Source: Altererythrobacter epoxidivorans (GTDB lineage: Bacteria; Pseudomonadota; Alphaproteobacteria; Sphingomonadales; Sphingomonadaceae). Taken from it: a stretch of DNA of 64,000 nt. Under the pieces are notes generated by a model. It was not told where the DNA came from. It saw only the letters and a program-made list of their open reading frames with translations, and searched no databases. Location: NCBI RefSeq assembly GCF_001281485.1, contig NZ_CP012669.1, positions 2,387,501 through 2,451,500 of the forward strand. Reading direction: 5' to 3'. Below, one piece after another: positions 40,158-54,606 of this stretch. Made by a program: the position numbers and the translations under genes. The stretch's first letter is position 1. The number at the start of each line of letters is the position of its first letter.

Positions 40158-41453
40158 TCAGGCCGGCTTGCGGGCGAAAATCCCGAAGCCGGCGATGATG
40201 GCGTAACAGATCGCAGGAATGGCGAGCGCCAGCGCCAGATTGCCGCCGGTCGCGTCGGCCACCGCGCCGAACACCAGCGGCACGATCGCGCCGCCGCAGA
40301 TCGCCACGTTGATGATCCCCGAACCGTCGGCAGCGCGCGGGCCCAGCTTTTCGCAGGCGAGGCTGAAGATGGTCGGGAACATGATCGAGTTCATCAGGCC
40401 GACTGCGAGCAGGCTGTAGGCCGCCAGTTCACCCGACGTGTTCGCGCTGATCAGGATCAGCAGGATCGAACCGGTCGCGTTGAAGGCGAGGATCTTGCCC
40501 GGCGAGAAGATGCGGAGGAAGGCCGAGCCGATGAAGCGGCCAACCATGGCGCCGCCCCAATAGAGGCCGATCATCCAGCCGATCACGCTTTCGGGCTGGC
40601 CCAGCACGCGCTCCTCGGCGAGGTAGTTGATGATGATCGAACCGATCGAGACCTCTGCCCCCACGTAAAGGAAGATGCACAGCGCACCGAAACCGAAGCG
40701 GGTGCGTTTCAGCAGGTCGAGGCCTGCCAGCCCTGCCGATGCTTCGTGCCGTTCGCCTTGCAGCCGGTTGCGGAACATCCACACGGCGAGCGCGACCAGC
40801 GCAATCAGGACGGCGACACCGAGATAGCCCTGCCAGATCGCTTCGCTTTCGGCCTGGCGGTAGGCGGTCAGTTCCGCGCCGCTCAGCTGATCGGCGGTGA
40901 CGTTGGCGAGGCTGCCCAGGATGACCGCCGCGCCGACGATCGGGAAAACCGTCGTGCCGAGCGAATTGAAAGCCTGCGCGAAGGTAAGGCGGCTGTGCGC
41001 GGTCTTTTGCGGTCCGAGCAGCGAGATCAGGGGGTTGGCGACGACCTGCACGATCACCACGCCGCTTGCGAGAACGAAGAACGCACCGAGGAACAGCGGG
41101 TAGGCAACGATCTGGCTCGCCGGAATGAACAGCAGGCAGCCGACAATCATGGTGACGAGGCCTGCGACCGCGCCGCGCATGTATCCGATCTTCTTGACCA
41201 GCTTCGCGCCGGGGATGCCGACGAGGGCGTATGCGGCGAAGAAGCAGAACTGGATCAGCATCGCTTCGGTGTAATTGAGCGTGAAAAGCTCTTTCAGCTT
41301 CGGGATGATCACATCGTTAAGCGACGTGATCCCGCCAAAGATGAAGAACAGGCCGAAGACGAAGTAATTGAGGCCGGGGGCGTGGATGCCGTTGCCCTCT
41401 TCCTCGATCGGCGACGGATCCGTGCTCGACGAAACATCGGGTGCGAGTGCCAT
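40158..41453 (-). CDS. FucP-type sugar MFS transporter
   Basis: A 431-residue, 12-helix major facilitator of the FHS (fucose-galactose-glucose:H+ symporter) group: YFVFGLFFIFGGITSLNDVIIPKLKE, FFAAYALVGIPGAKLVKKIG, LLGPQKTAHSRLTFAQAFNSLGT, and GGAIVPLVFGAVAD. Members carry L-fucose, glucose or galactose; alongside a GH3 beta-glucosidase, glucose import is the most natural guess. The start MALAPDVSSST at 41453 fits better than a longer N-terminus. It is last in the receptor-halogenase-GH3 run, and its upstream gap carries two palindromic elements, so it may have its own promoter. Confidence 0.9.
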   Translation of the reverse strand: MALAPDVSSSTDPSPIEEEGNGIHAPGLNYFVFGLFFIFGGITSLNDVIIPKLKELFTLNYTEAMLIQFCFFAAYALVGIPGAKLVKKIGYMRGAVAGLVTMIVGCLLFIPASQIVAYPLFLGAFFVLASGVVIVQVVANPLISLLGPQKTAHSRLTFAQAFNSLGTTVFPIVGAAVILGSLANVTADQLSGAELTAYRQAESEAIWQGYLGVAVLIALVALAVWMFRNRLQGERHEASAGLAGLDLLKRTRFGFGALCIFLYVGAEVSIGSIIINYLAEERVLGQPESVIGWMIGLYWGGAMVGRFIGSAFLRIFSPGKILAFNATGSILLILISANTSGELAAYSLLAVGLMNSIMFPTIFSLACEKLGPRAADGSGIINVAICGGAIVPLVFGAVADATGGNLALALAIPAICYAIIAGFGIFARKPA

Positions 41454-41488
41454 TATTTTCTCTCCCAGGTTCCCGCTTGATGCGGAAT

Positions 41489-41536
41489 GCATGGACTAAC
41501 GCATACCCTCGGCGCGTCCATGCGTATTCGAATACG
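41489..41536. promoter_or_regulatory. palindromic elements upstream of the FucP-type gene
   Basis: Two perfect inverted repeats lie between the GH3 stop and the symporter start: GCATGGAC (41489-41496) with GTCCATGC (41516-41523), spacer 19; and the 14-bp palindrome CGTATTCGAATACG (41523-41536). The latter differs from the AACGTT-centred sites of the locus, so a different regulator may act here. Confidence 0.45.
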
Positions 41537-41541
41537 TCCGA

Positions 41542-43929
41542 TCAGAACGAACAGTCCGTGCCTTCGGGCAAATCGACCCGCGCAATGCCCGAAATGCTGA
41601 ACTTGAGCGGACCCTGCGACGTGATCGTGATGGCGTTTCCGCCAGCGATGCAGCTTTCCGTCAGGATCATCTGGCGCCAGTCCTTGCCGCCCGCGACCGC
41701 AAGGTCTGCGGTGACGTCGAGGACCTTGTCGCCCACCTTGACCGTCACCGGCGCCGTCGGGCTGGCTGCAACCGAATAATCGATCACGAAATCGCCGCCC
41801 TTGCTGCCGTCGCCGGTGATAGTGAGCGAGGAACCGGGCTCGAAAGTGACTTCGCGCGCATCTTCCTGTCGCAGGCGATCGATGCCGCGTGCAGTAATGC
41901 CCGCCGCTTCGCCGCGCAGGTCTGGCAGCGCCTTGCCGCCGGCAGAAGCGGTAACGCCCTGCGACAGGCGGCCGTTTTCGTACCACGCGTTGGACGGTGC
42001 GTCGGACAGGAACCCGCATTCTTCGCTCAGCACATCGGGACCACCGGTCTGGCCGGTCGCGAGGCCATAGCCGCGCTTGAACAGGGCGCCTTCGGGTCCA
42101 TTGACGGGCTTGCCATTGCATTCGACCGGCCAGCTGAACGATAGCCGCCCGCTTGCCTCGCGCTTGCCGAACAGGATGTCGGACACGCCTGCCCCCTCAC
42201 CGCCGGGCAGCCAGCTTGCCACGAAGGCATCGGCCGCGTTGAGCTCGCGATTGACCCACATTGGACGCCCCGAAAGGAAGACTGCGACCACCGGGATGTT
42301 CGCCTTCTTGAGCTTGCGGATGAGCGCCAGCCCCTCTTCGTCGGAGAAGGCGAGATTCTTACGGTCGCCATAGAATTCGGCATAAGGCTGTTCGCCGAAT
42401 ACGACGATTGCCGCATCGACCACGCCGCGCGGCAGGTCGCCATCCTTCGACAGGATGACATTGCCGCCAGCCGCAGCCACTTCGTCGGCAATGCCCTTGT
42501 AGATCGAGGTCGCGCCGGGAAAGTAATCGTTGGTCAGCTCGCTGCCACCCTGCCATGTCAGGGTCCAGCCACCGGCCGCCTGCTGGATGCTGTCCGCAGC
42601 GCTTCCGGCGACGAGGAACCTAGCGCCCGGTTTCAGCGGCAGGACGCCGTTGTTCTTCAGGATGACCTGCGATTTTGCCACCGCCTCGCGTGCGAGCGCC
42701 CGGTGTTCGGGCGAGCCGACGATATCGAGTTGGCCGCCTACGCCGCGTTCGGATGGACGCTTTGCATCGGGGCCGATTATCCCGGCGCGCAGCTTGACCT
42801 TCAGGATGCGTGCAACCGCACGGTCGAGGGTCGCCATCGGGATGGTGCCATCCTCGACCTGCGCGACGAGATTTTCGAGCAGCGGCTTCCAGTCGTCGGG
42901 CACCATGTAGATGTCGAGGCCGGCCTTCAGAGCCTGAGCGCAATCCGTCACGGTGCAACCCTTGACCTGGCCGTGGCCGTTCCAGTCGCCGACCACCAGC
43001 CCGTCAAAGCCCATTTCGTCACGCAGCACGCCGGTCAGCAAGGCTTCGTTGCCATGCATCTTCTTGCCGTTGATCGAATTGAAGCTGGCCATCACCGCCT
43101 GCACGCCAGCGTCGATCGCGACGGGGTAGGGCACTGCGTGGATTTTCTTCAGTTCCTCGATGTCGCCATGGACGTCACCGGTGTCGATGCCCTGCGCCGT
43201 GCCGCCATCGCCGAAGAAGTGCTTGGCCGTGGCGATAACCCGGCGATCGCCGAGATAATCATCGGTACCCGGCGCACCTTGCAAGCCTTCGACCAGCGCC
43301 GCGCCCAGTTCGGCGACGAGTTGCGGGTCTTCGGAATAGCTTTCGTAGGCCCGACCCCAGCGGTCGTCCTGCGCAACGGCAACCGTCGGCGAGAAGTTCC
43401 AGTCGATGCCGGTCGCCTCGATTTCTGCCGCAGTGGCCGCGCCGATCCGGCGGACGAGATCGGGATCATGCGTCGCGCCCAGGCCAACGTTGTGCGGGAA
43501 GATGGTCGCGCCGGTGACATTGGTATGCCCGTGCACGGCATCGGTGCCCCACATGGTGGGGATTGCCGGCTCGCCATTGGGCAGCGGCTTGACCGAAGCA
43601 TCGTACATTTCATCTGCGAGGCGCAGCCATTCGCCGGCACTGGCGAATTCGTCGCCATAGGGGCCACCGTTTCCGCCGTTGAGGTAACTGCCGAAGCGAT
43701 AACGCTCCATGTCCTGCGCGGTGAACGAATTGATCTGCGGCTGGATCAGCTGGGCAACCTTGCGCTCCAGGCTCATCTTCGAAAGCAGGGCGGCAACCTG
43801 CTCGTCTTCGCTCGCAGCGGGAGCGGCTGCGGATTCAACGGGCTCAACAGGCGTGGTGGCACATGCGCCGAGGCCGGCCGCAAGCGCAATCGCCGCAGTA
43901 AAATGAAGTGCACGAAAAGCGGTATTCAC
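41542..43929 (-). CDS. glycoside hydrolase family 3, exo-beta-glucosidase (ExoP-like) lipoprotein
   Basis: A 795-residue GH3 enzyme with a lipoprotein-type signal (lipobox GLGAC), so it acts in the periplasm or at the outer membrane. The GH3 N-terminal barrel shows PTMWGTDAVHGHTNV, RVIATAKHFFGDGGT and the nucleophile Asp in GLVVGDWNGH; the second domain has KNNGVLPLKPGARFLVAG; an additional C-terminal carbohydrate-binding-like domain of about 150 residues is typical of the exo-1,3/1,4-beta-glucan glucohydrolase group. It should release glucose from beta-glucans or cello-oligosaccharides. A perfect AACGTT-centred palindrome lies upstream, consistent with control by the LacI protein of the locus. 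Confidence 0.95.
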   Translation of the reverse strand: MNTAFRALHFTAAIALAAGLGACATTPVEPVESAAAPAASEDEQVAALLSKMSLERKVAQLIQPQINSFTAQDMERYRFGSYLNGGNGGPYGDEFASAGEWLRLADEMYDASVKPLPNGEPAIPTMWGTDAVHGHTNVTGATIFPHNVGLGATHDPDLVRRIGAATAAEIEATGIDWNFSPTVAVAQDDRWGRAYESYSEDPQLVAELGAALVEGLQGAPGTDDYLGDRRVIATAKHFFGDGGTAQGIDTGDVHGDIEELKKIHAVPYPVAIDAGVQAVMASFNSINGKKMHGNEALLTGVLRDEMGFDGLVVGDWNGHGQVKGCTVTDCAQALKAGLDIYMVPDDWKPLLENLVAQVEDGTIPMATLDRAVARILKVKLRAGIIGPDAKRPSERGVGGQLDIVGSPEHRALAREAVAKSQVILKNNGVLPLKPGARFLVAGSAADSIQQAAGGWTLTWQGGSELTNDYFPGATSIYKGIADEVAAAGGNVILSKDGDLPRGVVDAAIVVFGEQPYAEFYGDRKNLAFSDEEGLALIRKLKKANIPVVAVFLSGRPMWVNRELNAADAFVASWLPGGEGAGVSDILFGKREASGRLSFSWPVECNGKPVNGPEGALFKRGYGLATGQTGGPDVLSEECGFLSDAPSNAWYENGRLSQGVTASAGGKALPDLRGEAAGITARGIDRLRQEDAREVTFEPGSSLTITGDGSKGGDFVIDYSVAASPTAPVTVKVGDKVLDVTADLAVAGGKDWRQMILTESCIAGGNAITITSQGPLKFSISGIARVDLPEGTDCSF

Positions 43930-43953
43930 GAATTATCCCTCCCAAACGCCCTT

Positions 43954-43969
43954 TTGAGAACGTTCTCAA
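43954..43969. promoter_or_regulatory. LacI-type operator upstream of the GH3 gene
   Basis: TTGAGAACGTTCTCAA is a perfect 16-bp palindrome with a central CG, 25 bases before the GH3 start. This is the classical shape of a LacI/GalR-family operator. A related AACGTT-centred element precedes the TonB receptor, and a LacI gene lies between the two. Confidence 0.75.
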
Positions 43970-44007
43970 TTCGAGGGATTACACGCTGGGAAGTGAAAAT
44001 CAAGCGC

Positions 44008-45210
44008 CTATCTGGCGCGGGCAAGGAAGAGGATCAGCAGGCAGGCGACCGCCGCCAGCGCAGCAAGCAGCACGAACAGCGCGCTGAATCCGGCGACGGG
44101 CACCAGTGCAAGCGTCAGGCCAGGGATGATCAAAGAAGGAACCGTATTGGTGAGATTGAAGAAGCCGAGATCGCGCGCCCGATGCTGCGGACGCGGCAAT
44201 ACCCGGAGCGTCTGGCTCGAATGGAGCGACAGGAACGTCATCGAACTGATGCCGAACAGGACATAGCCGGCAAGGGCCGAATTCTCCGTCGTTGCAAGCG
44301 CCATCGCGATAAGGCCGAGGGAGGACAGCGCCGCGCAGATAGCCAGCGGCACCATCGGGCGGCCATGGCGGTCCGACCAGCGCCCCGCGACCAGCGCTAT
44401 CGGCACTGCCACGACCAGCACGACGCTGAAGATATTCGCTGCCCGGTTCTCACCGAAATCGGGCGTGATCGAGCGCATCCAGAACAGCAGGAATGCGAAC
44501 AACGCGGCTTCGGATACCTGCACGAGCAGCCTCGCGGTCCACATCCCGACGATGGCCTTGCGCTGGCGCTTGCCCGCCTCTGCCCGCTGAGAGAGCTTGT
44601 CCGCAGGCTCCATCAGGCGGGGCATGCGCCGTCCGCCACCGAATACGAGGGCCGGCGCGATCATCACGCCGACGATCGCGGCGACCAGCACGAGGCGCGT
44701 CTGGCCGTCGGCAAGCCCGGGGAATGTGACGAAGGCGCCCGACAGTGCGCCCAGTGCCGGGGCGAGCGCAAAGAGTCCGCCGAGCAGGCCCTTCTGTTCG
44801 TCCGGCACGCAGTCTCCCGCCCAAGCGAGCAATGGCGACAGCATCATGTTGAGCGACATCTGCCAGACCATGACGATGGCGATGATCTGCGAGAGAGAGG
44901 TGGCATAGCCGACGCAGACGAGCAGCGCACCCGAGGCGATCATTCCGGCGAGGATCCAGCCGCGCCTCGTGCCGCTGCGATCGCTGAGCCAGCCGAAACC
45001 GATATTGGCGAGACTGGCGATCACGGCGCCTGCAAATGTCGAATAGGATAGCGCTGCAACGTCCTCGCCGCCCATCAACTCGCTGATGCGGACCGGCAGA
45101 AGGACGGTGAGGAAGGGGACATAGGCAACCGCGCCGCCTGCCACGGCCAGTGTCAGCAGAAGCAGGAACCAGAGCGGCTGGCGCTCTTGCGAAGGGGTGT
45201 CAGCCGCCAT
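44008..45210 (-). CDS. MFS transporter
   Basis: A 400-residue, 12-helix MFS permease: FLLLLTLAVAGGAVAYVPFL, IGFGWLSDRSGTRRGWILAG (the loop 2-3 motif), AGDCVPDEQKGLLGG, and VAGRWSDRHGRPMVPLAICA (the repeated motif in the second half). It resembles oligosaccharide/melibiose-type or SLC45-like carriers found with TonB receptors in sphingomonads. The ATG at 45210 gives MAADTPSQERQPLW and overlaps the LacI stop by eleven bases. A disaccharide or glucoside substrate is inferred from the neighbours. Confidence 0.88.
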   Translation of the reverse strand: MAADTPSQERQPLWFLLLLTLAVAGGAVAYVPFLTVLLPVRISELMGGEDVAALSYSTFAGAVIASLANIGFGWLSDRSGTRRGWILAGMIASGALLVCVGYATSLSQIIAIVMVWQMSLNMMLSPLLAWAGDCVPDEQKGLLGGLFALAPALGALSGAFVTFPGLADGQTRLVLVAAIVGVMIAPALVFGGGRRMPRLMEPADKLSQRAEAGKRQRKAIVGMWTARLLVQVSEAALFAFLLFWMRSITPDFGENRAANIFSVVLVVAVPIALVAGRWSDRHGRPMVPLAICAALSSLGLIAMALATTENSALAGYVLFGISSMTFLSLHSSQTLRVLPRPQHRARDLGFFNLTNTVPSLIIPGLTLALVPVAGFSALFVLLAALAAVACLLILFLARAR

Positions 45211-46261
45211 TTGCAGCCGGCACAGGCCCGGTCGAGGCACGCTCTACCAGCGAACCTTCGACGTTGATCGGCTCTGTCGGCATGGCGATCTTGTCCTGAT
45301 TGATGAGCAGTTCGACAGCCCGGGAAATCGTCTCGGCGATCGGCTGATCGACCGCTGTCAGTGCAGGCTGCGTGAATTTGACGATGGGCGTGTTGTCGAA
45401 ACTGACGAGCGACAGGTCGCGCGGGATCTCGAGCTCAAGGTCGCGAGCCACCTCGAGCGTCGCCAGCGACATCTGGTCACTCGAAGCGATGATCGCGGTC
45501 GGACGGTCAGGGGAATCGAGCAGGCGGCGTGCTGCCTTGAGACCGGATTCGAAACTGAAGTCGCCGCGTTCGCACAAGCCATCGGTAGCAAGGCCAGCGT
45601 CCTGCATGGCGCGCAGCCAGCCGTCGATGCGCCATCCGCTGAGGCTGTATTCCTCAGGCCCGGCGATCAGCGCAATCCGGGTGTGGCCGAGGCCGATCAG
45701 GTGTTCGGTCGCCTTTCGAGCAGAGCCATCATCATCCAGCGTCAGGCGGATGCCCGGCCCCGGCTCGAGCGAGCTGATCCGTGCGAAAGAGATCTGGCGC
45801 TTGGCCAGCAGCCCGGTGATGAGCGGGTTTTCCGAGTGCGGCGGTGTCAGGATCACCCCGTCCGGCTGGAGCGCTGCGATCATCGCCGACAGTTCGCGTT
45901 CGACATGGTCGTTATGCGTGTCGACCAGTTCGACCATCATGCGATAGCCGTGTTCGGCACAGGTCAGCATCCCGCCGAGCAGCATCTGGTCGACCCAGTC
46001 GGTACCGATGCGCTCGCGCCAGTCGGCAATCGTGCGTTCGCGATCGTTGATGGCAAGGATGAGATAGGACCTCGAACCGCTCATCCGCTGGGCCGCGATC
46101 GAGGGGACATAGCCCAGCCTGTCGATCGACGCCTGCACCCGCTCCTTCATTTCCGGGCGAACATTGGGTTCATTGTTGATGACGCGGCTGACCGTTTGCA
46201 GCGACACCCCTGCGTCCGCTGCAACATGCTTGATAGTCACTGCCTGGCGACGCCTAGCCAC
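45200..46261 (-). CDS. LacI family transcriptional regulator
   Basis: A 353-residue repressor: HTH TIKHVAADAGVSLQTVSRVI with the hinge region RLGYVPSIAAQRMSG, then a periplasmic-binding-protein-like sensor domain (SYLILAINDRER, GVILTPPHSENPL, RIALIAGPEEYSLSGW, TAIIASSDQMSLATLEVARD). The probable start is GTG 46261. LacI proteins bind sugar ligands and release CG-centred palindromes. The likely targets are the TTGAGAACGTTCTCAA site before the GH3 gene and the GTGAACGTT/AACGTTCAC pair before the TonB receptor. Confidence 0.95.
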   Translation of the reverse strand: MARRRQAVTIKHVAADAGVSLQTVSRVINNEPNVRPEMKERVQASIDRLGYVPSIAAQRMSGSRSYLILAINDRERTIADWRERIGTDWVDQMLLGGMLTCAEHGYRMMVELVDTHNDHVERELSAMIAALQPDGVILTPPHSENPLITGLLAKRQISFARISSLEPGPGIRLTLDDDGSARKATEHLIGLGHTRIALIAGPEEYSLSGWRIDGWLRAMQDAGLATDGLCERGDFSFESGLKAARRLLDSPDRPTAIIASSDQMSLATLEVARDLELEIPRDLSLVSFDNTPIVKFTQPALTAVDQPIAETISRAVELLINQDKIAMPTEPINVEGSLVERASTGPVPAANGG

Positions 46262-46349
46262 CTGCCGTTACCCCCTTCGATCCCTTGGCGGGCGGACTTA
46301 TCCCAACACCCGCGCCAGTTCCAGCCATGTCATGCAATTGTTGCGGCAA

Positions 46350-47864
46350 TCAGGCAGCCGCCTTTGTATTGGCGCCGCAGAATTGCGAAACATAGGCGTG
46401 GTGCGCGGGCAGCCCGGCAACCGTTTTTTCTACAGATTCGCGTATATTCGTGAGCAGGTTGTCCAGTTCACTGTCCGAAAGCTTGGTGGCAATCGGGTGA
46501 TAGGATTCAGGGACAATACCCTGGCCCATCATTACTTGGATCCAGCTGTTCTCGACGAAAAGTTCGTCGTTCTTGCGGAACACCAGACCTGTCTGGCGGA
46601 ACAGGTCGATCTTGTGCTGCAGGCTGTCGGGAATATCCATGTCGCGGCACTGGCGCCAGAACGGGGAATCGCCACGCTCGGTCGCCTTGTAATGCAGGAT
46701 CAGGAAGTCGCGGATCTGGACCATGTCGGTCAGCTGCTGGTCGTTGAATTCGTCGATGTCGCTCTGGTCGATCGTCCCGGCGGGCAACATGCGGATCAGG
46801 CGGACGACGGCGCGCTGGATCAAATGGATGCTGGTCGATTCCAGCGGCTCCATGAACCCGCCCGAAAGACCCACCGCCACGCAATTGCGGTGCCATTGCT
46901 TGCGCCGGGCGCCGGTCTGGAACCTGATGAAGTTCGGATCCGTCAGCGTCTTGCCCTCGACGCTCGACAGCAGACGCTCGGCAGCTGCATCCTTGTCGAG
47001 ATAGCGGCTGCAATAGACGATGCCGTTGCCCTGGCGGTGCTGCAGCGGGATGCGCCATTGCCAGCCCGCGTCATGCGCGATCGCGCGTGTGTAGGGGATC
47101 GGTTCGCGCACGCTTTCCGTCTGGACCGCGACCGCGGCATCGCAGGGCAGCCAGTGGGTCCAGTCGTCATAGCCGACATGCAGGGCGCCGCCGATCAGCA
47201 GCGCTCGAAAGCCGGTGCAATCGACGAACAGGTCGCCTTCGATCCGCTTGCCGGAATCGAGCCTCAGCGCGGCAATATCGCCGCTTTCGCTGTCCAGTTC
47301 GACCTCGGCGATCTTGCCCTCGACCCGGGTCGCGCCCTCGCTCTCCGCGATCTTGCGCAGGAACGCGGCATAGCGCGAGGAATCGAGGTGGTAGGCATAG
47401 TTCAGCCGGTTGTCGGGCAATTGCGCGAACTTGTGCGCATAGGCGGCCTTCAGTTCCAGGCAGTAATCGTCGAAGCTCGCCGTGTGCCCCCTGGTCTTCC
47501 CGTGCATCCAGAAGTGCAGGAAATTGGCGGCCCAGTGATCGCGCCCGGTCGTGCCGAAGGAGTGGAAGTATTTTTCGCCATCGACCTTCCAGTTCTCGAA
47601 CTCGATCCCGAGTTTGAAGGTCGCCTGCGTTTCCCGCATGAATTCGGCTTCATTGATGTTCAGCAGGCGGTTGTAGCCGACCAGCGGCGGGATCGTCGCT
47701 TCGCCAACTCCGACGGTCCCGATTGCTTCGGATTCCACCAGCGTCAGATCAATCACGTTTCCGAAAGCGCGGGCAAGGGCGGCCGCCGCCATCCAGCCTG
47801 CCGTGCCGCCACCTGCGACCACGACCCGCTTGATCGGTTTCGCCATGGGTTTGCTGTCGTTCAT
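46350..47864 (-). CDS. flavin-dependent tryptophan halogenase family protein (halogenase-like 1)
   Basis: A 504-residue flavoprotein of the tryptophan halogenase family. The FADH2-binding GGGTAGW is at residues 18-24 and GVGEATIPPL at 52-61. The Lys expected to form the chloramine/hypohalous relay is K84 (ATFK), the halogenase fingerprint W-x-W-x-I-P is intact (W268, W270, P273), and the second catalytic acid is E342 in EPLESTS. By sequence it could be catalytically competent. The substrate is unknown; members within TonB/SapC loci do not sit in antibiotic clusters. ATG 47864 overlaps the stop of the JmjC gene (ATGA). Confidence 0.93.
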   Translation of the reverse strand: MNDSKPMAKPIKRVVVAGGGTAGWMAAAALARAFGNVIDLTLVESEAIGTVGVGEATIPPLVGYNRLLNINEAEFMRETQATFKLGIEFENWKVDGEKYFHSFGTTGRDHWAANFLHFWMHGKTRGHTASFDDYCLELKAAYAHKFAQLPDNRLNYAYHLDSSRYAAFLRKIAESEGATRVEGKIAEVELDSESGDIAALRLDSGKRIEGDLFVDCTGFRALLIGGALHVGYDDWTHWLPCDAAVAVQTESVREPIPYTRAIAHDAGWQWRIPLQHRQGNGIVYCSRYLDKDAAAERLLSSVEGKTLTDPNFIRFQTGARRKQWHRNCVAVGLSGGFMEPLESTSIHLIQRAVVRLIRMLPAGTIDQSDIDEFNDQQLTDMVQIRDFLILHYKATERGDSPFWRQCRDMDIPDSLQHKIDLFRQTGLVFRKNDELFVENSWIQVMMGQGIVPESYHPIATKLSDSELDNLLTNIRESVEKTVAGLPAHHAYVSQFCGANTKAAA

Positions 47865-48892
47865 TGGTTGATCGTCCTCATCAGGAAAGCGCGTATCCGG
47901 CCTGCCGTTTCGGCCGTCAGCGGATCGAGAATGCCCCGTTTGCCTTCGGGAATATGCGCTGCGACCTCGGGCCCGTTTTCGAATACGTAGTAATCGAAGA
48001 GCTGTCGCCAGATCGCCTTTTCGTCTTCCGGCAAATCGCGCACGGCCAGGATCGCGTGATTGAGCGCGTCCTGCGGCTGGCCCAGCCAGCGCGGGGTCTC
48101 GCGCCACCAGTAATTGATCATGGCGTTGAAGCCGTCGCGCCCCTCGACATGGTGCCACCACAGGCTGGGTACGAAGACCGCGTCGCCCGGCTCGAGATCA
48201 GCGACGAGCCCATGCTTCACCGCCTCGGCAAAGCGTGGATGCGCATCCCAGTCGGGATCGTGGAAATCGACCATGCTGACGGCACGGCCGGCCGGCGTAT
48301 TATCGATCGGGCCGAGATAGAGATTGGGGAACTGGTCCGGCGGAAAGACCGTGAAGCGGCGGCGCCCGACCGCGCAGCAGGCGAGGTTGTCGGGAAAATC
48401 ATTATGCGCCGCCACCACCGTCCTGGTTCCGATCCAGATGCTGGTGATGGGCTGGCGATTGCCCAGATCGACATGGTTCGCCTCGTGCAGCCCGTCGAAG
48501 AAATCATGCACGTCGACCGAAGTGAGATAGATCGTCGGCGGGTTCGCCCTGCCCTCGTTATCGTCGATCCCCTTGAAGATCGCTGCGAGGTCGCCGCGCG
48601 CGGTCTGGAAATTCATCTCCATATCGCTGTCGTAGAACAAGCGGCCATCATGCCCCGGGGGGCCGAGAGATACGGTGAAGGGGCGCTTGCGGGCGTGATC
48701 GACCAGATAGTCGCGGGCTTCCTTCGCCGACCGCTTGCCCGCCTGGACAAGCGGCCATTCGGCCACGAGACCGCGGATGACGAATGGCCTGTCGGCAGAA
48801 CAGATCAGCGCATCGAGCGCGGCGGCATCACCTGCCTCGCGCTCTTCCATGCGCGGCATGGAATCAAGGACAGAGGCGCACGCCTCAGCCAA
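47861..48892 (-). CDS. cupin-like (JmjC/cupin-8) domain protein
   Basis: About 343 residues with the cupin-8/JmjC fold of Fe(II)/2-oxoglutarate dioxygenases: RPFVIRGLVAEWPLV, DGRLFYDSDMEM, IWIGTRTVVAAHNDFPDNLAC with the HxD metal motif, RRRFTVFPPDQFPNLYLGP, and DAVFVPSLWWHHVEG with the distal His. Such proteins can hydroxylate proteins or small molecules. The start is uncertain: TTG 48892 overlaps the SapC stop by eight bases; ATG 48859 or 48850 would be shorter and fit the family start about as well. Tightly packed between sapC and halogenase-like 1. Confidence 0.88.
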   Translation of the reverse strand: MAEACASVLDSMPRMEEREAGDAAALDALICSADRPFVIRGLVAEWPLVQAGKRSAKEARDYLVDHARKRPFTVSLGPPGHDGRLFYDSDMEMNFQTARGDLAAIFKGIDDNEGRANPPTIYLTSVDVHDFFDGLHEANHVDLGNRQPITSIWIGTRTVVAAHNDFPDNLACCAVGRRRFTVFPPDQFPNLYLGPIDNTPAGRAVSMVDFHDPDWDAHPRFAEAVKHGLVADLEPGDAVFVPSLWWHHVEGRDGFNAMINYWWRETPRWLGQPQDALNHAILAVRDLPEDEKAIWRQLFDYYVFENGPEVAAHIPEGKRGILDPLTAETAGRIRAFLMRTINQ

Positions 48893-49604
48893 TGTCGATC
48901 CGTGCGTTCTTGCGCGCGATCAGGTCGGTAAAGTGGCTCATCGAAGCCAGCACCATGAAGACCGGCATCAGGTGACCGTCCTTGTGCAGATCGGCCAGTT
49001 CGTCCCCGGTCAGCGCCTGCAGCTTCTCTTCGTGGATGGTGGCAAATCCGACGAGCGAGTGTTTCGAGCCGTCTTTCAGCGGCACTTCAAGGGTGAAGGG
49101 TTCGATCAAGTCATAGCGCTTCATCGCTTCGTAGAATGCGCCGCTCGCCTGGTAGCTGTCGTGCAACATGCCGAGCTTGTTGACGATGTTTTCGAGATAG
49201 GGCGTCATCGAGCCGTCATCGTCGAAAACGCGCATCCCCTCGCCATCGGTTGAAATCCGTGGGTGATCCATGTCCACATGGACCTGGCTTTCCCCGCTTT
49301 CCTGCGATGGGCGTCCGATCAGGAACGGCTGGATCGAATGGGCGAGCGGCTGGTAGCGCGTGTCCCATTTGCCGTCGTTGACGAACAGGTTCTCGCCCTC
49401 GGTAAAGCCGAACAGCGCCAGGGCGACATAACTACCCGTTTCGGCATCGCGGCGAAACACGATGGGATAGTGCGCCTGGACCTGGCGAAATTCATGCGGA
49501 ACGGTCATCGCTGCCATGACCCCGTCGCCGAGCTCGGCAGAGGCCCCGGTGTTGATGCGCAGGTCGCGATGTTCTTCGCTGCTGAGGAAACGGTGATCGG
49601 TCAT
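48885..49604 (-). CDS. SapC family protein
   Basis: A 239-residue protein of the SapC family (named after a Campylobacter S-layer-associated gene): HEFRQVQAHYPIVFRRDAET, ALFGFTEGENLFVNDGKWD, RYQPLAHSIQPFLIG, and the C-terminal LHKDGHLMPVFMVLASMSHF. The family function is not established. It starts two bases after the halogenase-like 2 stop codon. In sphingomonads and caulobacters it travels with TonB receptors, tryptophan halogenase-like proteins and cupin-8 proteins, as here. Confidence 0.92.
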   Translation of the reverse strand: MTDHRFLSSEEHRDLRINTGASAELGDGVMAAMTVPHEFRQVQAHYPIVFRRDAETGSYVALALFGFTEGENLFVNDGKWDTRYQPLAHSIQPFLIGRPSQESGESQVHVDMDHPRISTDGEGMRVFDDDGSMTPYLENIVNKLGMLHDSYQASGAFYEAMKRYDLIEPFTLEVPLKDGSKHSLVGFATIHEEKLQALTGDELADLHKDGHLMPVFMVLASMSHFTDLIARKNARIDIG

Positions 49605-49605
49605 G

Positions 49606-51168
49606 TCAGGCAGTCTGTTCCTTTTGCATCGCTGCATCCGTCCGGGATGCGGCGACTTTGTCGAGATAGGCGCGGTTGGTCGGTAGCGCCGCGCTGAGCG
49701 CGCGTGTCTGGTCGCGCACTTCTGCGATCCGCGCAAGCGCAGCCTCCGGCGCAGGGTTCGTGGCTGAGGGCGGAACGGGGAAGCCCATTCCGTAAAGGAC
49801 GAACTGCTGGCTCGCGGCGGAGAAGATCTCGTCCACCTGCGGGAAGTCCCATGACGACGGCGGCTGGTCGCGCCACAGCTCGATCTGTTCGGCAAGGCGC
49901 GGAGGGATGCTTTCGGCGCTGCGTTGCGCCTGCCAGTAAGGTTCTTCGCGGCGGCTGAGGACGTAATGAAGTTTCAGGAAGTCGACGATCCGGTCCCAGC
50001 GATATCGGAACAGGTCGTTGAATCGACCGGCATGTATGTCCATCGCCCGGCGTGAGGCCGGAAAATTGTCCGCCAGAGCGCGCACGGAGAGCTCGATGAG
50101 GACGATCGCCGAAGCTTCGAGTGGTTCGATGAAGCCTGCCGACAGCCCGATGGCGACGCAGTTCCGGCGCCAGAAGTCGCGGCGATGGCCTGTCCTGAAG
50201 GATAGTTTGCGCGGCTGCAGCCCTTCCACGTCGATATGTGGCACATGCGCCGCGACATATCGCCGCAGAATGGCATCGGCCCGGTCGTCATCGATGAAGC
50301 GCGAGCTATAGACGCACCCGATCCCGCGCCGCGTCGGCAAGGCGATATCCCACAGCCAGCCCGCCTCGTGCGCCGTGCCGACGGTCTGCGAAGCGACTGC
50401 ACTTCCCGGCGCTACGGGCACTTGCACGGCGAGCGCGCGGTCGTTGAAAGAAACGTCGGACCGGTCGACCCATTCGGAGCCGAGCGCACCGCCGATCAGG
50501 ACACCGGCATGCCCGCTGCAATCGATGAAGAAGTCGCCTTCTATCCTTTCACCATCGCTTGTCACAACGGCGGCGATGTCGCCGCCGGCCGCACGTTCGA
50601 TCTCATCCACCCGGGCGGCAATCCGCCTGATGCCGAGGCGTTGTTCGCCATGCTCTGCAAGCAGGGCAGCGAACTTTCCTGCATCGAGGTGATAGCCGTA
50701 ATTGGCAGCCGCGGCGTAGCCAGGCATCCCGGTCTGGCGCGGCGCGAGATCGCGGTCGCATAGCTGCGCCTGCGGCGTCATCGCATGGGCAAAGGACCGG
50801 TCCTGAGCGGCTTGCTGCCATGCCGCGACCAGGCCGTGCATGTCACCGGGTGGCGGCGCGCTGAAGGGATGGTAGTATCTGTCGTCCGGTTCGCCATCGA
50901 CCCATCCGTCGAAGCGCGAGCCCTGCTTGAAGCTGGCATCGCAGCGGGCAAGGAATTCGCTTTCCTCGATCCCTATCGCCTCGAGCGTGCCGCGCATGGT
51001 GGGCCAGGTCCCCTCGCCGACGCCGATGGTCGGAATGTCGGGTGCCTCCACCAGTGTGATCGAAAGCTCGGGCCTTCGGACAGCGAGGAAACAGGCCGCA
51101 AGCCAGCCGGCCGTTCCCCCGCCGAGGATCACGGTTCTGGCAACGCTAGCTGACATTGTACCGCTCAT
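49606..51168 (-). CDS. flavin-dependent tryptophan halogenase family protein (halogenase-like 2)
   Basis: A 520-residue paralogue of the protein at 46350-47864, but clearly diverged. FAD motif GGGTAGW at 16-22, [10 protein letters not shown] at 49-58 (Ala-Thr-Ile of the usual motif changed to Gly-Thr-Trp), catalytic Lys K81 in ASFK retained, but the W-x-W-x-I-P fingerprint reads WLWDIA (271-276) and the EPLES(T/S)G motif reads EPLEASA (E351 kept, following residues changed). Catalysis may be altered. It follows the TonB receptor with an intervening terminator-like hairpin. An ATG at 51156 is an alternative start. Confidence 0.92.
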
Positions 51169-51216
51169 TTTTCTTTCCGAAGCCCGGGGTCCGGACCTGC
51201 TTTAGCGCAAGGCCCA

Positions 51217-51256
51217 AACGAAAGAGAGTCGCCCTGCCGAGGCAGCGCGACTCTCT
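51217..51256 (-). terminator. intercistronic terminator/attenuator between TonB receptor and halogenase-like 2
   Basis: AGAGAGTCGC (51223-51232) pairs perfectly with GCGACTCTCT (51247-51256); an inner CTGCC/GGCAG extends the stem. Read on the minus strand the hairpin is followed by TTTCGTTT. It lies 33 bases after the receptor stop and should lower read-through into the halogenase-SapC-JmjC genes. Confidence 0.75.
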
Positions 51257-51288
51257 GTCATCATCGGGGCCTGTTCAAGCCCGACGAC

Positions 51289-54200
51289 TTACCAGGTGAA
51301 GCGCACACCTGCCGCGTAACGGGCATAACCCGGTGCCGCGAAGAAGACGGTCTGGTCGTTGCGCATGTGGCCACGACGGTCTTCATTGGTGATGTTGATG
51401 CCTTCGACAAAGACCGTCAGGCCGTTGTTGAATTCATAACTCGCGCTGGCGTCGAACTGGCCGTAGCTTTCGACATAGTACGGGTCGAGGCCGTAACCCG
51501 ACAGGAATTCGTCGCGCCAGTTGTAGGCGATACGGGCCTGCAGGCCATTCTTGTCGTAGTAGACCACGGCGTTGGCGCTGTCGCTGACGCCCGTTACGGC
51601 AAACTGCGTTTCGGTATAGCGCAGGCTGTTGTCGTAAGACGTGTCGCTGTTCACGATCGTGTAGTTCAGGATCGTGCCGAAGCCGGTTTCGCCGAAGCTG
51701 TGCTGAAGGGCGAATTCCCAGCCCGTCAGGTTCGCGGTCTGGTCGCTATTGCCCGGCTGACCCAGGGTGAAGATCACTTCAGGGTCGGTCGACTGGCCGA
51801 GAATACCGATCGGATCGCCGCTGCCATTGTATTCCACCGCATCGGGGTAGTTCGCAATGACGTATTCGATTATCGATTCGCCCGGACGGCTGGCGTCAGG
51901 CGCGAAAGGCGCATTGCTGGGCTGGTTCGCGACGGCTTCCTGGAAGATCGCGCCCTGGCCCGGGTTGGTCAGGCCAAAGGCAGCCGACTGTGTCGTCGTG
52001 GTGCCGATGAAGTTGCTGACATTCTTGGCGAAGAAGCCGACCGAAATGTAGCTCGCCGGGGCGTAGTACCACTCTGCCGAAAGATCGATGTTCTTCGACT
52101 TGTAGGGCAGCAGGCCGGGGTTACCCGCGCCGCCGGTGCTGCCGCCGCCCGGACGAATGGGCGAAGCAACGGTCAGGCCGCCATCGAGATTGTTGTATGC
52201 CGGACGGGTGATCGTGTGGCTGTACGAAGCGCGCAGCTTGACGTCTTGGAACGGCTCCATGCTGAAATCGATCGCCGGCAACCAGTTGTCATACTTGCCG
52301 GTCAGCGTCGTGAAGTCTGCCGCCGAATTGTCGTAGATGATCGCGATTTCATTGTACGAAATCTGCGACGTACCGATAGGGATCGGAACCAGTGCCGAGG
52401 ACTTCACCTTGGTTTCTTCATAGCGAAGGCCAAGGCGCAGGTCGGCAGGGGTTTCGCCGCCGAGCGTGAACGAATGGGTCGTCTGGATGAACGGCGAAAC
52501 GGTGCGCTCGCGCAGGCGACGGTCGACGGTGAATTCGGCAAGGCAGCCGACACCCGAGGGCGTGCCGGACCACGGAGCGCTACAGATCGAAACTTCGTCG
52601 TCGAGGAACTCGATGAGGCCTTCGGTATCGATGTCGAAATAGCTCGGGATGATGCCTTCGGCCTGCGAACCGGACATTCCGGCAAGGTTCGAGGGTAGGT
52701 CGGTCAGCGTGAAGAAATCATCCGGAAGCTCGTCGGCTGCGAGCGTACCGCCCCAGGAGTCGGTCTGGAGGAAGCCGTATGCCGAACGAACCTTGTTTTC
52801 GGTGTAGGTCGCGCCGAAGTCGAGGCTGTCGATGAAGCTGGAGTCGAAATCGTAACCGGCCTTGAGCGACAGCTCGTTGATCGTGTCCTTCATGTAGGCA
52901 TTGCGGAATGCGTTGCCCGAGGGACGGATGTTCGAAGCGTCGATTTCCGAACCCGGATACATGTTGACCGAGATGACCGGCATGTCGGTCGTGAAGTCGA
53001 CCACCTGGTTCTGGACACCGAAGATCGCGTTGCCGACAGCGATGTTGCTGCCATAGGGCGAGGTCGGCTTGCTTTCCGAAGTCGAGTGGTGACCGTCGAG
53101 CTTCACGCGAAGACCGCCGAGACCTTCCCACTCGAGGGTGCCGCCAATCGACTGAAGGATCGTGCGATTCGCCGCGACTGCGCCGGTGACCGCGAGATCC
53201 TTACCCGGGCCGAATGCTTCTGCGTAGAAGTTCGGGCCTGCCGCCGGGCCATCGGTCCAGCTGCTCGAGGTATTTTCGTGATTGAACCATACGCCGATGC
53301 TGTTGGTGCGGGCATCGATGGTGTTCTGCGCGTAGGTGTAGTCGATGCTGGCCGACAGATTGTCGGTCGGCTGGAACTGCAGCACGGCCTGGCCATTGAT
53401 GCGCTCGCGCTTGATATCGGTGAAGTCGTAGCCGGCGTTCTGGGTGACCTGGTAGATGTCCGTCGGATCCGGACGATTCTCGATCTGGTTGAGAAGGTTC
53501 GGATTGACGTAAAGGACACGCCAGTCGTTTTCCGGCGGCGGAATCGTCAGGCCGTCAGCTGGCTGTGTACCGGGAAGTGAGCCCCAGTTGTTTTCGTTGC
53601 CGAGGTAACCTTCGCGCCAGCCGGCGTTGAACTGCGCCAGGCTTGCGCGGCGCTTCTGGTACGAACCGCTGATGAGGATGCCGAAGCGGTCGTCGCCGAA
53701 GGTGTTCGAGATGATGCCCGAGATTTCCGGGGTGATTTCGGTGCCGTCGAAGGTGTGGTCGAGCACGCCCTTCGCACCGATGCTGCCCTGGAAGCCCGGA
53801 CGATCGAGCGGCTTGGGCGTCTTGATGTTGATTACCGAACCGATACCGCCGGTCGGCAGGCTCGCACGGCCGGACTTGTAGACTTCTACGCCTGCAATGC
53901 CTTCGGAAGCGAGGTTGGCGAAGTCGAAGCTGCGCGATGCCGGAGCTTCACAGCAGCTGCCGAGGCCCGACGCAGGCATCTGGCGACCGTTGAGGAGGAC
54001 GAGGTTGAATTCGGGGCCGAAGCCGCGAACCGTGACGGTCGAGCCTTCACCGCTGTTGCGGTCAATCGAAACGCCGGTGATGCGCTGCAGCGATTCGGCG
54101 AGGTTCGTATCGGGGAACTTGCCGATGTCTTCGGCCGAGATGGCATCGACGACGCCCTGCGCGTCGCGCTTGATGTCCATGGCGCGCTGCAGCGAGGCAC

Positions 54201-54354
54201 GGATGCCCGAAACGACGATGACGTTGTCGTAATCTTCCGCTGCTGCCGCTTCTTCGGTGTCCTGCGCGAAGGCAGTTTGTGCCGTCATGCCGAGCGCGAC
54301 GACAGAAGCCCCCGCCAACAGCTTCGCACCAGCGTTTTCACGCTTCCAGACCAT
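51289..54354 (-). CDS. TonB-dependent receptor (Xanthomonas/Caulobacter carbohydrate type)
   Basis: A 1021-residue outer-membrane receptor. Signal peptide LLAGASVVALGMTAQTAFAQ, then a short N-terminal region with VIVVSGIRASLQRAMDIKRD acting as the TonB-box region, a plug domain (ISAEDIGKFPDTNLAESLQR, ITGVSIDRNSGEGSTVTVRG, LVLLNGRQMP), and a large beta barrel ending in an aromatic residue (RYAAGVRFTW). This is the subfamily that imports oligosaccharides in Caulobacter and Xanthomonas. The ATG at 54354 is preceded by GGAGGAGA. The upstream inverted repeat GTGAACGTT/AACGTTCAC suggests LacI control. It is the first gene of the locus. Confidence 0.96.
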   Translation of the reverse strand: MVWKRENAGAKLLAGASVVALGMTAQTAFAQDTEEAAAAEDYDNVIVVSGIRASLQRAMDIKRDAQGVVDAISAEDIGKFPDTNLAESLQRITGVSIDRNSGEGSTVTVRGFGPEFNLVLLNGRQMPASGLGSCCEAPASRSFDFANLASEGIAGVEVYKSGRASLPTGGIGSVINIKTPKPLDRPGFQGSIGAKGVLDHTFDGTEITPEISGIISNTFGDDRFGILISGSYQKRRASLAQFNAGWREGYLGNENNWGSLPGTQPADGLTIPPPENDWRVLYVNPNLLNQIENRPDPTDIYQVTQNAGYDFTDIKRERINGQAVLQFQPTDNLSASIDYTYAQNTIDARTNSIGVWFNHENTSSSWTDGPAAGPNFYAEAFGPGKDLAVTGAVAANRTILQSIGGTLEWEGLGGLRVKLDGHHSTSESKPTSPYGSNIAVGNAIFGVQNQVVDFTTDMPVISVNMYPGSEIDASNIRPSGNAFRNAYMKDTINELSLKAGYDFDSSFIDSLDFGATYTENKVRSAYGFLQTDSWGGTLAADELPDDFFTLTDLPSNLAGMSGSQAEGIIPSYFDIDTEGLIEFLDDEVSICSAPWSGTPSGVGCLAEFTVDRRLRERTVSPFIQTTHSFTLGGETPADLRLGLRYEETKVKSSALVPIPIGTSQISYNEIAIIYDNSAADFTTLTGKYDNWLPAIDFSMEPFQDVKLRASYSHTITRPAYNNLDGGLTVASPIRPGGGSTGGAGNPGLLPYKSKNIDLSAEWYYAPASYISVGFFAKNVSNFIGTTTTQSAAFGLTNPGQGAIFQEAVANQPSNAPFAPDASRPGESIIEYVIANYPDAVEYNGSGDPIGILGQSTDPEVIFTLGQPGNSDQTANLTGWEFALQHSFGETGFGTILNYTIVNSDTSYDNSLRYTETQFAVTGVSDSANAVVYYDKNGLQARIAYNWRDEFLSGYGLDPYYVESYGQFDASASYEFNNGLTVFVEGINITNEDRRGHMRNDQTVFFAAPGYARYAAGVRFTW

Positions 54355-54404
54355 CAAGTTTCTCCTCCCAGAGCCATGCACAAAAGGCGCATGATGTTCA
54401 AATT

Positions 54405-54433
54405 GTGAACGTTCCCTATTTGATAACGTTCAC
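54405..54433. promoter_or_regulatory. double AACGTT operator upstream of the TonB receptor
   Basis: GTGAACGTT (54405-54413) and AACGTTCAC (54425-54433) form a perfect 9-bp inverted repeat with an 11-base spacer; each half contains an AACGTT core with a central CG. The site lies 51-79 bases before the receptor start and shares its core with the palindrome before the GH3 gene. Confidence 0.65.

Positions 54434-54529: not shown

Positions 54530-54606
<77 letters not shown>

What the first reader, a model, noticed from the sequence alone, without database searches (positions are those of the whole stretch)
40158..54433. Nine-gene TonB receptor-halogenase-SapC-JmjC locus with a LacI regulator and beta-glucan genes
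Nine consecutive minus-strand genes combine sugar scavenging (TonB receptor, MFS, GH3, FucP, LacI) with two flavin halogenase homologues, SapC and a JmjC/cupin-8 protein. The second group has no evident place in sugar catabolism. Several of the genes touch or overlap (halogenase 2/SapC/JmjC/halogenase 1), which argues for a single functional unit. An attractive but unproven idea is that the four proteins modify a surface or secreted component, or the receptor, in step with glucan supply. The co-occurrence itself is known in related genomes as far as I recall; the function is not.
Basis: partly seen in the sequence, partly recalled or inferred. Interest (0 to 1): 0.75.

Follow-up and report, generated by a model that had tools for sequence, protein, structure and literature searches.

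The report
Sugar-receptor operon with halogenase-SapC-JmjC enzymes
A bacterial operon for eating beta-glucans also carries two halogenases, a SapC protein and a JmjC-type oxygenase that accompany one kind of outer-membrane receptor in many species, so they may modify that receptor, an idea that can be tested directly.

Summary
The nine minus-strand genes are real: a CUT-type beta-glucan locus (TonB-dependent receptor, LacI, MFS, ExoP-like GH3, FucP/GluP) with four extra genes (hal2, SapC, JmjC/Cupin_8, hal1) packed behind the receptor gene. The block is conserved: receptor, SapC, JmjC and both halogenases occur together in 65 of 74 assessable close relatives, and in the same order in 9 of 40 sampled SapC loci from other classes of the phylum. 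In 30 Sphingomonadales genomes 50 of 56 halogenases lie within 10 kb of a receptor of this family; none was found in the 12 genomes without one. The block goes with receptor type more than with sugar. SapC also occurs fused to a hal2-type halogenase. Catalytic residues are kept in nearly all copies. An operator of a pattern found once in the genome precedes the receptor gene, and a conserved hairpin separates it from the enzymes. Best reading: co-regulated enzymes that modify the receptor chain before export. The substrate is inferred, not shown; a residue-level test found no position tracking halogenase linkage beyond ancestry. The arrangement is widespread; no paper in the held library holds both 'halogenase' and 'SapC'.

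The parts
40158..41492 (-). FucP/GluP-type inner-membrane sugar MFS symporter
   Evidence: Pfam MFS_1; NCBIfam gluP over its cut-off (274.2 vs 202.55 bits)
41542..43929 (-). GH3 exo-beta-glucanase, ExoP-type, with a signal-peptide-like N-terminus (by eye)
   Evidence: Pfam GH3 N and C domains; closest PDB 3usz exo-1,3/1,4-beta-glucanase, 655 bits
44008..45210 (-). second MFS transporter
   Evidence: Pfam MFS_1; LacI/MFS gap at most 30 bp in 54 of 55 relatives
45200..46261 (-). LacI-family regulator, GTG start
   Evidence: Pfam LacI + Peripla_BP_3; on the same strand in 71 of 75 assessable related loci
46350..47864 (-). hal1: BrvH/Xcc4156-type flavin-dependent halogenase
   Evidence: PF04820 634.6 bits; closest PDB 6y1w Xcc4156 660 bits, 9luq 593, 6frl BrvH 446; K84, E339, WQWRIP
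47861..48859 (-). JmjC/Cupin_8 oxygenase, FIH-like
   Evidence: PF13621 226 bits; closest PDB FIH; H152, D154 and H236 each at least 95% conserved in 109 sequences
48885..49604 (-). SapC family protein
   Evidence: PF07277 225.5 bits; no PDB sequence relative; model pLDDT 89.6 without a PDB fold match
49606..51168 (-). hal2: second flavin-dependent halogenase, another subfamily
   Evidence: PF04820 407 bits; closest PDB 9ltb 752 bits, 2pyx 455 bits; K81, E348, WLWDIA
51223..51256 (-). hairpin with T-rich tail between TBDT and hal2 (terminator-like, attenuator candidate)
   Evidence: 10-bp stem, then TTCGTTTG; a stem of at least 8 bp (G-T allowed) at this place in 86 of 91 loci, 23.2 expected from mononucleotide shuffles
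51289..54354 (-). TonB-dependent receptor, TonB-Xanth-Caul family, 1021 aa from ATG
   Evidence: TIGR01782 607.7 bits vs cut-off 310; Plug + barrel; model resembles solved TBDTs
53287..53289 (-). codon of TBDT Trp356 (candidate target, or a sugar-contact residue)
   Evidence: W in 97% of 36 core-clade receptors, 7% of 29 unlinked ones outside it; end of barrel strand 333-356 in the model
51517..51519 (-). codon of TBDT Trp946 (candidate, same caveat)
   Evidence: W in all 36 core-clade receptors, 14% of 29 unlinked ones outside it; near the end of strand 938-947
54408..54430 (.). operator-like AACGTT-N11-AACGTT upstream of TBDT; LacI as its reader is inferred
   Evidence: only exact match in the genome; TGAACGTT upstream of TBDT in 67 of 69 sequences, the window and 68 related loci

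Best explanation
This is a CUT-type beta-glucan locus with a receptor-dedicated modification module. LacI represses the promoter in front of the TBDT gene (inferred from the motif), and glucan-derived sugar lifts the repression (inferred). A hairpin after the TBDT gene lets much receptor and little enzyme be made (inferred from its position). In the cytoplasm SapC, working with hal2 (the two occur fused elsewhere), presents the still unfolded receptor precursor. The two FADH2-dependent halogenases modify aromatic residues on it, most likely Trp, and the FIH-like JmjC oxygenase hydroxylates another side chain. The modified receptor is exported and assembled in the outer membrane, where it takes up the oligosaccharides that the GH3 and the inner-membrane transporters handle. 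Shown here: gene content, recurrence, order, fusion, near-universal catalytic residues, motif, hairpin, and linkage to receptor type more than to sugar. Inferred: that the receptor is the substrate, that Trp is the residue, the order of events, and the benefit.
For: Recurring unit: TBDT 78 of 78, JmjC 77 of 77, hal1 75 of 76, hal2 71 of 80; TBDT, SapC and the three enzymes together in 65 of 74 assessable loci (the best 80 of 279 relatives, so near orthologues). Order T-H-S-J-h in 9 of 40 SapC loci from other classes of the phylum and T-S-J-h in 2 more. Receptor link: 50 of 56 halogenases (E at most 1e-40) within 10 kb of a TIGR01782 TBDT; 14 of 18 genomes with such TBDTs have a halogenase, 0 of 12 without (kinship not corrected). 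In a tree of 86 receptors, 42 SapC-linked ones form one clade, support 0.997 (see evidence against for the larger tree). Not the sugar: window-type LacI-MFS-GH3 genes (with FucP in L248) sit beside another receptor type with one halogenase and no SapC or JmjC (L243, L248); on plasmids the halogenase-TBDT pair goes with genes that I read from their annotation as agar, xylan, arabinan, fucose, starch and galactoside use. Partnership: hal2-type halogenase fused to a SapC-like C-terminus in L303 (right behind a TBDT) and L304 (641-652 bits to the hal2 profile). Activity: catalytic Lys in 127 of 131 hal1-type and 97 of 97 hal2-type; Glu in 129 of 131 and 96 of 97. BrvH does not accept free Trp, and its K83 is essential; a peptide substrate was suggested for BrvH and Xcc4156. 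No room for a separate precursor gene: the largest gap from TBDT to hal1 is 120 bp.
Against: No alignment column tracks halogenase linkage beyond ancestry: of 13 independent contrasts W946 favours linkage in 1; W356 in 4 and goes against in 1; the best column of any residue scores 6 to 0 and is an Ile. W946 also occurs in 5 of 30 unlinked receptors, and 9 of 25 halogenase-only receptors have Tyr there. In the larger tree of 100 the linkage is less clean: the window's clade also holds L282 (unlinked) and L291 (halogenase, no SapC found), and a T-H-SapC group branches among unlinked receptors. L282 has no halogenase or SapC within about 3 kb. 22 of 40 SapC-unlinked receptors have no halogenase within 6.5 kb, and 4 of 18 receptor-bearing genomes have none at all. 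Six of 56 halogenases are further than 10 kb from any such TBDT. Two of 18 plasmid halogenases have no neighbouring TBDT. hal2 is missing in 9 of 80 loci. Distance correlations do not single out the block from LacI or MFS. No complex, no mass spectrum, no mutant.
Confidence: 0.45

Rival explanations
1. The enzymes make a small halogenated aromatic compound (signal or antibacterial) when glucan is available; the receptor link reflects co-regulation only.
For: BrvH brominates free indole; the catalytic Lys and Glu of free-substrate halogenases are kept; the receptor promoter carries the repeated motif.
Against: No aromatic precursor, tailoring or export gene in the block; BrvH is slow on indole and its authors doubt that indole is natural; the halogenase-receptor pairing persists with unrelated sugar genes.
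Confidence: 0.2
2. The enzymes modify another envelope or secreted protein, or SapC itself is the substrate, and the receptor only marks the growth condition.
For: SapC is fused to a halogenase and is named after a protein of an S-layer locus (recalled); one transposon insertion in a tryptophan halogenase gene is listed in a colony-morphology screen of Sphingomonas (PMC11340318, one passage).
Against: 18 of 40 SapC-unlinked receptors have a halogenase within 6.5 kb, none of them with SapC there; the other genes in the loci vary.
Confidence: 0.15
3. The enzymes act on the cargo: aromatic groups linked to plant or algal glycans that enter through the receptor.
For: The annotated plasmid loci handle complex glycans.
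Against: Laminarin, starch and galactosides carry no aromatic groups (established knowledge); the enzymes show no signal peptide by eye, so cargo would have to reach the cytoplasm with its aromatic part (inference).
Confidence: 0.08
4. The neighbourhood is inherited baggage without joint function.
For: Distance matrices of all eight genes correlate (0.48-0.88), the block no more than LacI or MFS; MFS, GH3 and FucP come and go.
Against: Same order in other classes, JmjC/hal1 at most 30 bp apart in 73 of 73 (median -4), natural fusion, 0 of 12 TBDT-less genomes with a halogenase.
Confidence: 0.04

Closest known systems
CUT locus (sux locus of Xanthomonas campestris; PMC1790865, passages read)
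   Same: TBDT + inner-membrane MFS transporter + sugar-active enzyme + LacI-family repressor in one locus
   Different: 'halogen' and 'pass1' do not occur in its main text; the four-gene enzyme block is extra
BrvH / Xcc4156 flavin-dependent halogenases (PMC5945002, section 23 and passages; PMC7336383, passages)
   Same: hal1 is their relative (446 and 660 bits); brvH also has a second halogenase gene upstream, 42.7% identical; native substrates unknown, peptide suggested
   Different: 'receptor' does not occur in PMC5945002, and no held paper has both 'halogenase' and 'SapC'; here the genomic unit points to a candidate substrate
MibH, a peptide halogenase (PDB 5uao)
   Same: PF04820-type halogenase acting on a peptide (as stated in PMC7336383); hal1 matches at 198 bits, hal2 at 197
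   Different: Belongs to a lantibiotic cluster with a small precursor peptide (recalled); no such gene here
QhpG flavin monooxygenase (NCBIfam NF049967)
   Same: Related fold, acting on Trp of a protein before export (recalled)
   Different: Only weak matches, 32 and 36 bits vs cut-off 240
FIH (factor inhibiting HIF), JmjC protein hydroxylase
   Same: JmjC protein is closest to it in PDB, with the HxD...H residues
   Different: 70 bits over 118 residues only; substrate unknown here

Membership tests
CUT locus | TBDT, inner-membrane transporter, degradative enzyme and regulator gene together | tested here: met
CUT locus | induced by the cognate sugar and needed for its uptake | not testable with these tools
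   only an operator-like motif in front of the TBDT was found
Flavin-dependent halogenase, variant A (hal1) | GxGxxG, conserved Lys, WxWxIP | tested here: met
   GGGTAGW, K84, WQWRIP
Flavin-dependent halogenase, variant A (hal2) | GxGxxG, conserved Lys, WxWxIP | tested here: inconclusive
   GxGxxG and K81 met; the third motif is WLWDIA, and mostly WxWxIG or WxWxIA in its 97 relatives
Flavin-dependent halogenase | halogenates a substrate with FADH2, O2 and halide | not testable with these tools
   no assay
Peptide halogenase of a RiPP cluster (MibH-like) | small precursor-peptide gene in the cluster | tested here: not met
   gaps from TBDT to hal1 are 120 bp or less; a peptide under 40 residues cannot be excluded
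SapC (PF07277) | Pfam gathering score | tested here: met
   225.5 bits vs 28.9
JmjC 2-oxoglutarate oxygenase | Fe(II) residues HxD...H | tested here: met
   H152, D154, H236 each at least 95% conserved in 109 sequences; the role of the motif is recalled
TonB-Xanth-Caul receptor (TIGR01782) | curated cut-off 310 bits | tested here: met
   607.7 bits

The most novel reading that the evidence does not exclude
An outer-membrane transporter is halogenated on Trp (W356 and/or W946) and hydroxylated by dedicated, SapC-assisted cytoplasmic enzymes before export: a post-translational modification system for TonB-dependent sugar receptors, spread over several classes of Pseudomonadota, and the native role of BrvH-type halogenases.
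Probability: 0.3. Interest if true: 0.88.

Novelty: new variant of a known kind. Interest (0 to 1): 0.62.

Why it matters
BrvH-type halogenases are characterised enzymes whose native substrates remain unknown in the papers read. Their link to one family of sugar receptors names a concrete, testable one. If true, it would be a new kind of outer-membrane protein modification, present in marine, freshwater and plant-associated bacteria, that could set sugar affinity, stability or recognition of these receptors. It would also give SapC and these JmjC proteins a role.

Tried and rejected
Residue-level coevolution. A first scan made W946 and W356 look like linkage markers. With 100 thinned receptors and 13 independent contrasts the signal did not exceed ancestry, so the sites are kept only as clade-specific candidates. 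A third Trp column (664; 92% of the core clade) is Gln in the window.

Mirror-tree distances over 47 loci: all eight genes correlate (0.48-0.88), LacI and MFS as strongly as the block; not informative.

Sigma-70 promoter and generic terminator scans gave numbers at chance level. The operator-like motif and the hairpin came from comparison instead.

Literature: zero papers for three-term combinations of halogenase, SapC, TonB or polysaccharide utilization and for SapC + halogenase; 14 papers for halogenase + TonB, listing read, none on point by title; 23 papers for BrvH, 20 listed; PDB codes 9LTB/9LUQ/9LU2 in no held paper; two papers for tryptophan halogenase + polysaccharide + glycoside hydrolase; of 87 and 47 papers I saw 25 and 20 titles, none on the block. 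PMC8269204: passages only, nothing on neighbours of this kind. Subscription journals are not held. I recall, with no source read here, that Xanthomonas N-acetylglucosamine and xylan loci list Trp-halogenase, SapC and Pass1 (cupin) genes.

Full report
WHAT IS THERE. The window lies in a single-contig genome of 2,786,256 bases, by its nearest named SapC proteins and loci a relative of Altererythrobacter, Croceibacterium and Erythrobacter. Nine genes run on the minus strand between 40158 and 54354. From the promoter end: TBDT, hal2, SapC, JmjC/Cupin_8, hal1, LacI, MFS, GH3, FucP/GluP. hal2 stops 1 base before SapC starts; JmjC and hal1 overlap by 4 bases; LacI and MFS overlap by 11. A tRNA-Arg gene lies upstream (54530-54606). 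TBDT and GH3 begin with signal-peptide-like stretches; the four enzyme-block proteins do not (by eye).

BETA-GLUCAN. The GH3 is closest in PDB to the exo-1,3/1,4-beta-glucanase 3usz (655 bits). In 31 of 71 related loci with hal1 and LacI a GH16-like gene lies between them (one checked with Pfam). The window lacks it; the genome has one GH16 gene elsewhere. So laminarin or a similar glucan is the likely substrate (inference).

RECURRENCE IN KIN. SapC relatives in genome contigs: 279 confirmed, the best 80 kept with flanks, so this set leans to near orthologues. Counting same-strand matches where the contig was long enough or the gene was found: TBDT 78 of 78, hal2 71 of 80, JmjC 77 of 77, hal1 75 of 76, LacI 71 of 75, MFS 56 of 73, GH3 59 of 73, FucP 36 of 71. 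TBDT, SapC and the three enzymes are all present in 65 of 74, all nine genes in 35 of 71. TBDT, JmjC and hal1 are thus steadier than the sugar genes; hal2 is the dispensable member of the block.

WIDER SAMPLE. SapC occurs in 84 of 118 genomes of the order and 139 of 397 of the phylum. I fetched 80 SapC places before knowing their context: 40 from other classes of the phylum, 20 from other alphaproteobacterial orders, 20 from the order. They were picked by hand for contig length and, in the last set, for genomes with several copies. With a 6.5-kb limit, TBDT plus halogenase was found beside 19, 2 and 16 of them, JmjC too in 12, 2 and 14; 21, 10 and 3 stand alone, and in 0, 7 and 1 my profile did not refind SapC. 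The full same-strand order T-H-S-J-h is in 9 of 40, 0 of 20 and 2 of 20; T-S-J-h in 2, 2 and 10. In a SapC tree, 121 of 122 members of the operon clade (support 0.998) have a halogenase neighbour; a further 15 with one fall in the other half, with the 35 orphans. The window's genome has a second SapC gene without such neighbours.

RECEPTOR LINK WITHOUT SapC BIAS. I searched the same 30 genomes of the order for TIGR01782 receptors and PF04820 halogenases at E 1e-40 or better. 18 genomes have a receptor over the cut-off, 14 have a halogenase, and all 14 are among the 18 (Fisher p 2e-5, not corrected for kinship). Of 56 halogenases 26 are within 1 kb and 50 within 10 kb of such a receptor (0.39 expected within 1 kb). 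Of 61 receptors 31 have a halogenase within 10 kb.

THE BLOCK GOES WITH THE RECEPTOR TYPE. From I fetched 40 of the 52 receptors not beside SapC. 18 have a halogenase within 6.5 kb, six of them two to four, three also JmjC, none SapC. In a tree of 86 thinned receptors 42 SapC-linked ones form one clade (0.997) and 11 halogenase-only ones another, with smaller groups elsewhere. With 100 receptors the picture is less clean: the window's clade also takes in one unlinked (L282) and one halogenase-only receptor (L291), and a T-H-SapC group branches among unlinked ones. In L243 and L248 window-type LacI, MFS and GH3 genes (FucP in L248) sit beside a halogenase-only receptor. On plasmids, tblastn with hal2 hit 91 records, 40 listed. 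I read 18 chosen regions: 16 have a TBDT beside or one gene away from the halogenase, 6 have SapC. By my reading of the annotations the sugar genes include agar, xylan, arabinan, fucose, starch, galactoside, beta-glucoside, GH68 and GH9/GH1 types. Three named gammaproteobacterial plasmid loci carry TBDT, halogenase and SapC. One region has DUF6445 between TBDT and halogenase.

FUSION. In L303, directly behind a TBDT, and in L304, one frame holds a halogenase and a partial SapC domain. The halogenase part is hal2-type, 641 and 652 bits against 259 and 264 for hal1. This is separate evidence that SapC works with the halogenase.

ENZYMES LOOK ACTIVE. Catalytic Lys: 127 of 131 hal1-type, 97 of 97 hal2-type; Glu: 129 of 131 and 96 of 97; JmjC H152, D154, H236 at least 95% in 109. 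In BrvH the Lys is essential, free Trp is not accepted and indole is a poor substrate (PMC5945002, section 23). Xcc4156, hal1's nearest solved relative, has an open site that its authors say might take peptides (PMC7336383, passages). That the Glu is catalytic is recalled.

CONTROL. AACGTT-N11-AACGTT lies 54 bases upstream of the TBDT start and is the only exact match in the genome. TGAACGTT is found upstream of the TBDT in 67 of 69 related sequences. That LacI reads it is inferred. A hairpin stands between TBDT and hal2: a stem of at least 8 bp (G-T allowed) in 86 of 91 related loci against 23.2 expected from mononucleotide shuffles; 4 or more T in the 8 bases from its last stem base in 43; median folding z -3.8. 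More receptor than enzyme is the simple reading.

CANDIDATE SITES AND THE NEGATIVE TEST. In the core receptor clade (36 tips, 34 of them SapC-linked) three Trp columns are at least 90% conserved: 356, 664, 946. They hold Trp in 7%, 0% and 14% of 29 unlinked receptors outside it; the window has W356 and W946 but Gln at 664. In the model (pLDDT 84) both lie toward the ends of barrel strands that follow short turns, so probably toward the cell surface (inference). They may equally be sugar contacts. In 13 independent linked/unlinked contrasts no column separates the states convincingly, and W946 does so in only one. The residue evidence does not support Trp modification; it only lists places to look.

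VERDICT. A real and widespread unit; function unproven. Receptor modification is the best-supported mechanism (0.45). Small-molecule halogenation (0.2) and another envelope target (0.15) remain.

Noticed in passing
G000:C1:1410707-1411369 (L008:9654-10439): A second SapC gene between unrelated genes (after a D-2-hydroxyglutarate-dehydrogenase-like frame, by eye); SapC genes standing alone are common in the sample.
   Followed up: partly
L303:4754-6739 and L304:2080-4083: Natural fusions of a hal2-type halogenase with a shortened SapC domain.
   Followed up: yes
L257, L258, L260, L271, L298: Receptors with about four halogenase homologues or pieces in a row; why so many is unclear.
   Followed up: no
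L286:9306-10001: DUF6445 (PF20043) protein between a TBDT and a halogenase where SapC might be expected: possible functional replacement.
   Followed up: no
L282:3040-6015: Core-clade receptor beside a GH16 gene without halogenase or SapC within about 3 kb; does it work unmodified, or are enzymes supplied from elsewhere?
   Followed up: partly
PMC11340318, table passage: One transposon insertion in a 'Tryptophan halogenase' gene is listed among genes affecting colony morphology of a Sphingomonas isolate.
   Followed up: no
window 54530-54606: tRNA-Arg (CCG) upstream of the TBDT promoter, same strand.
   Followed up: no
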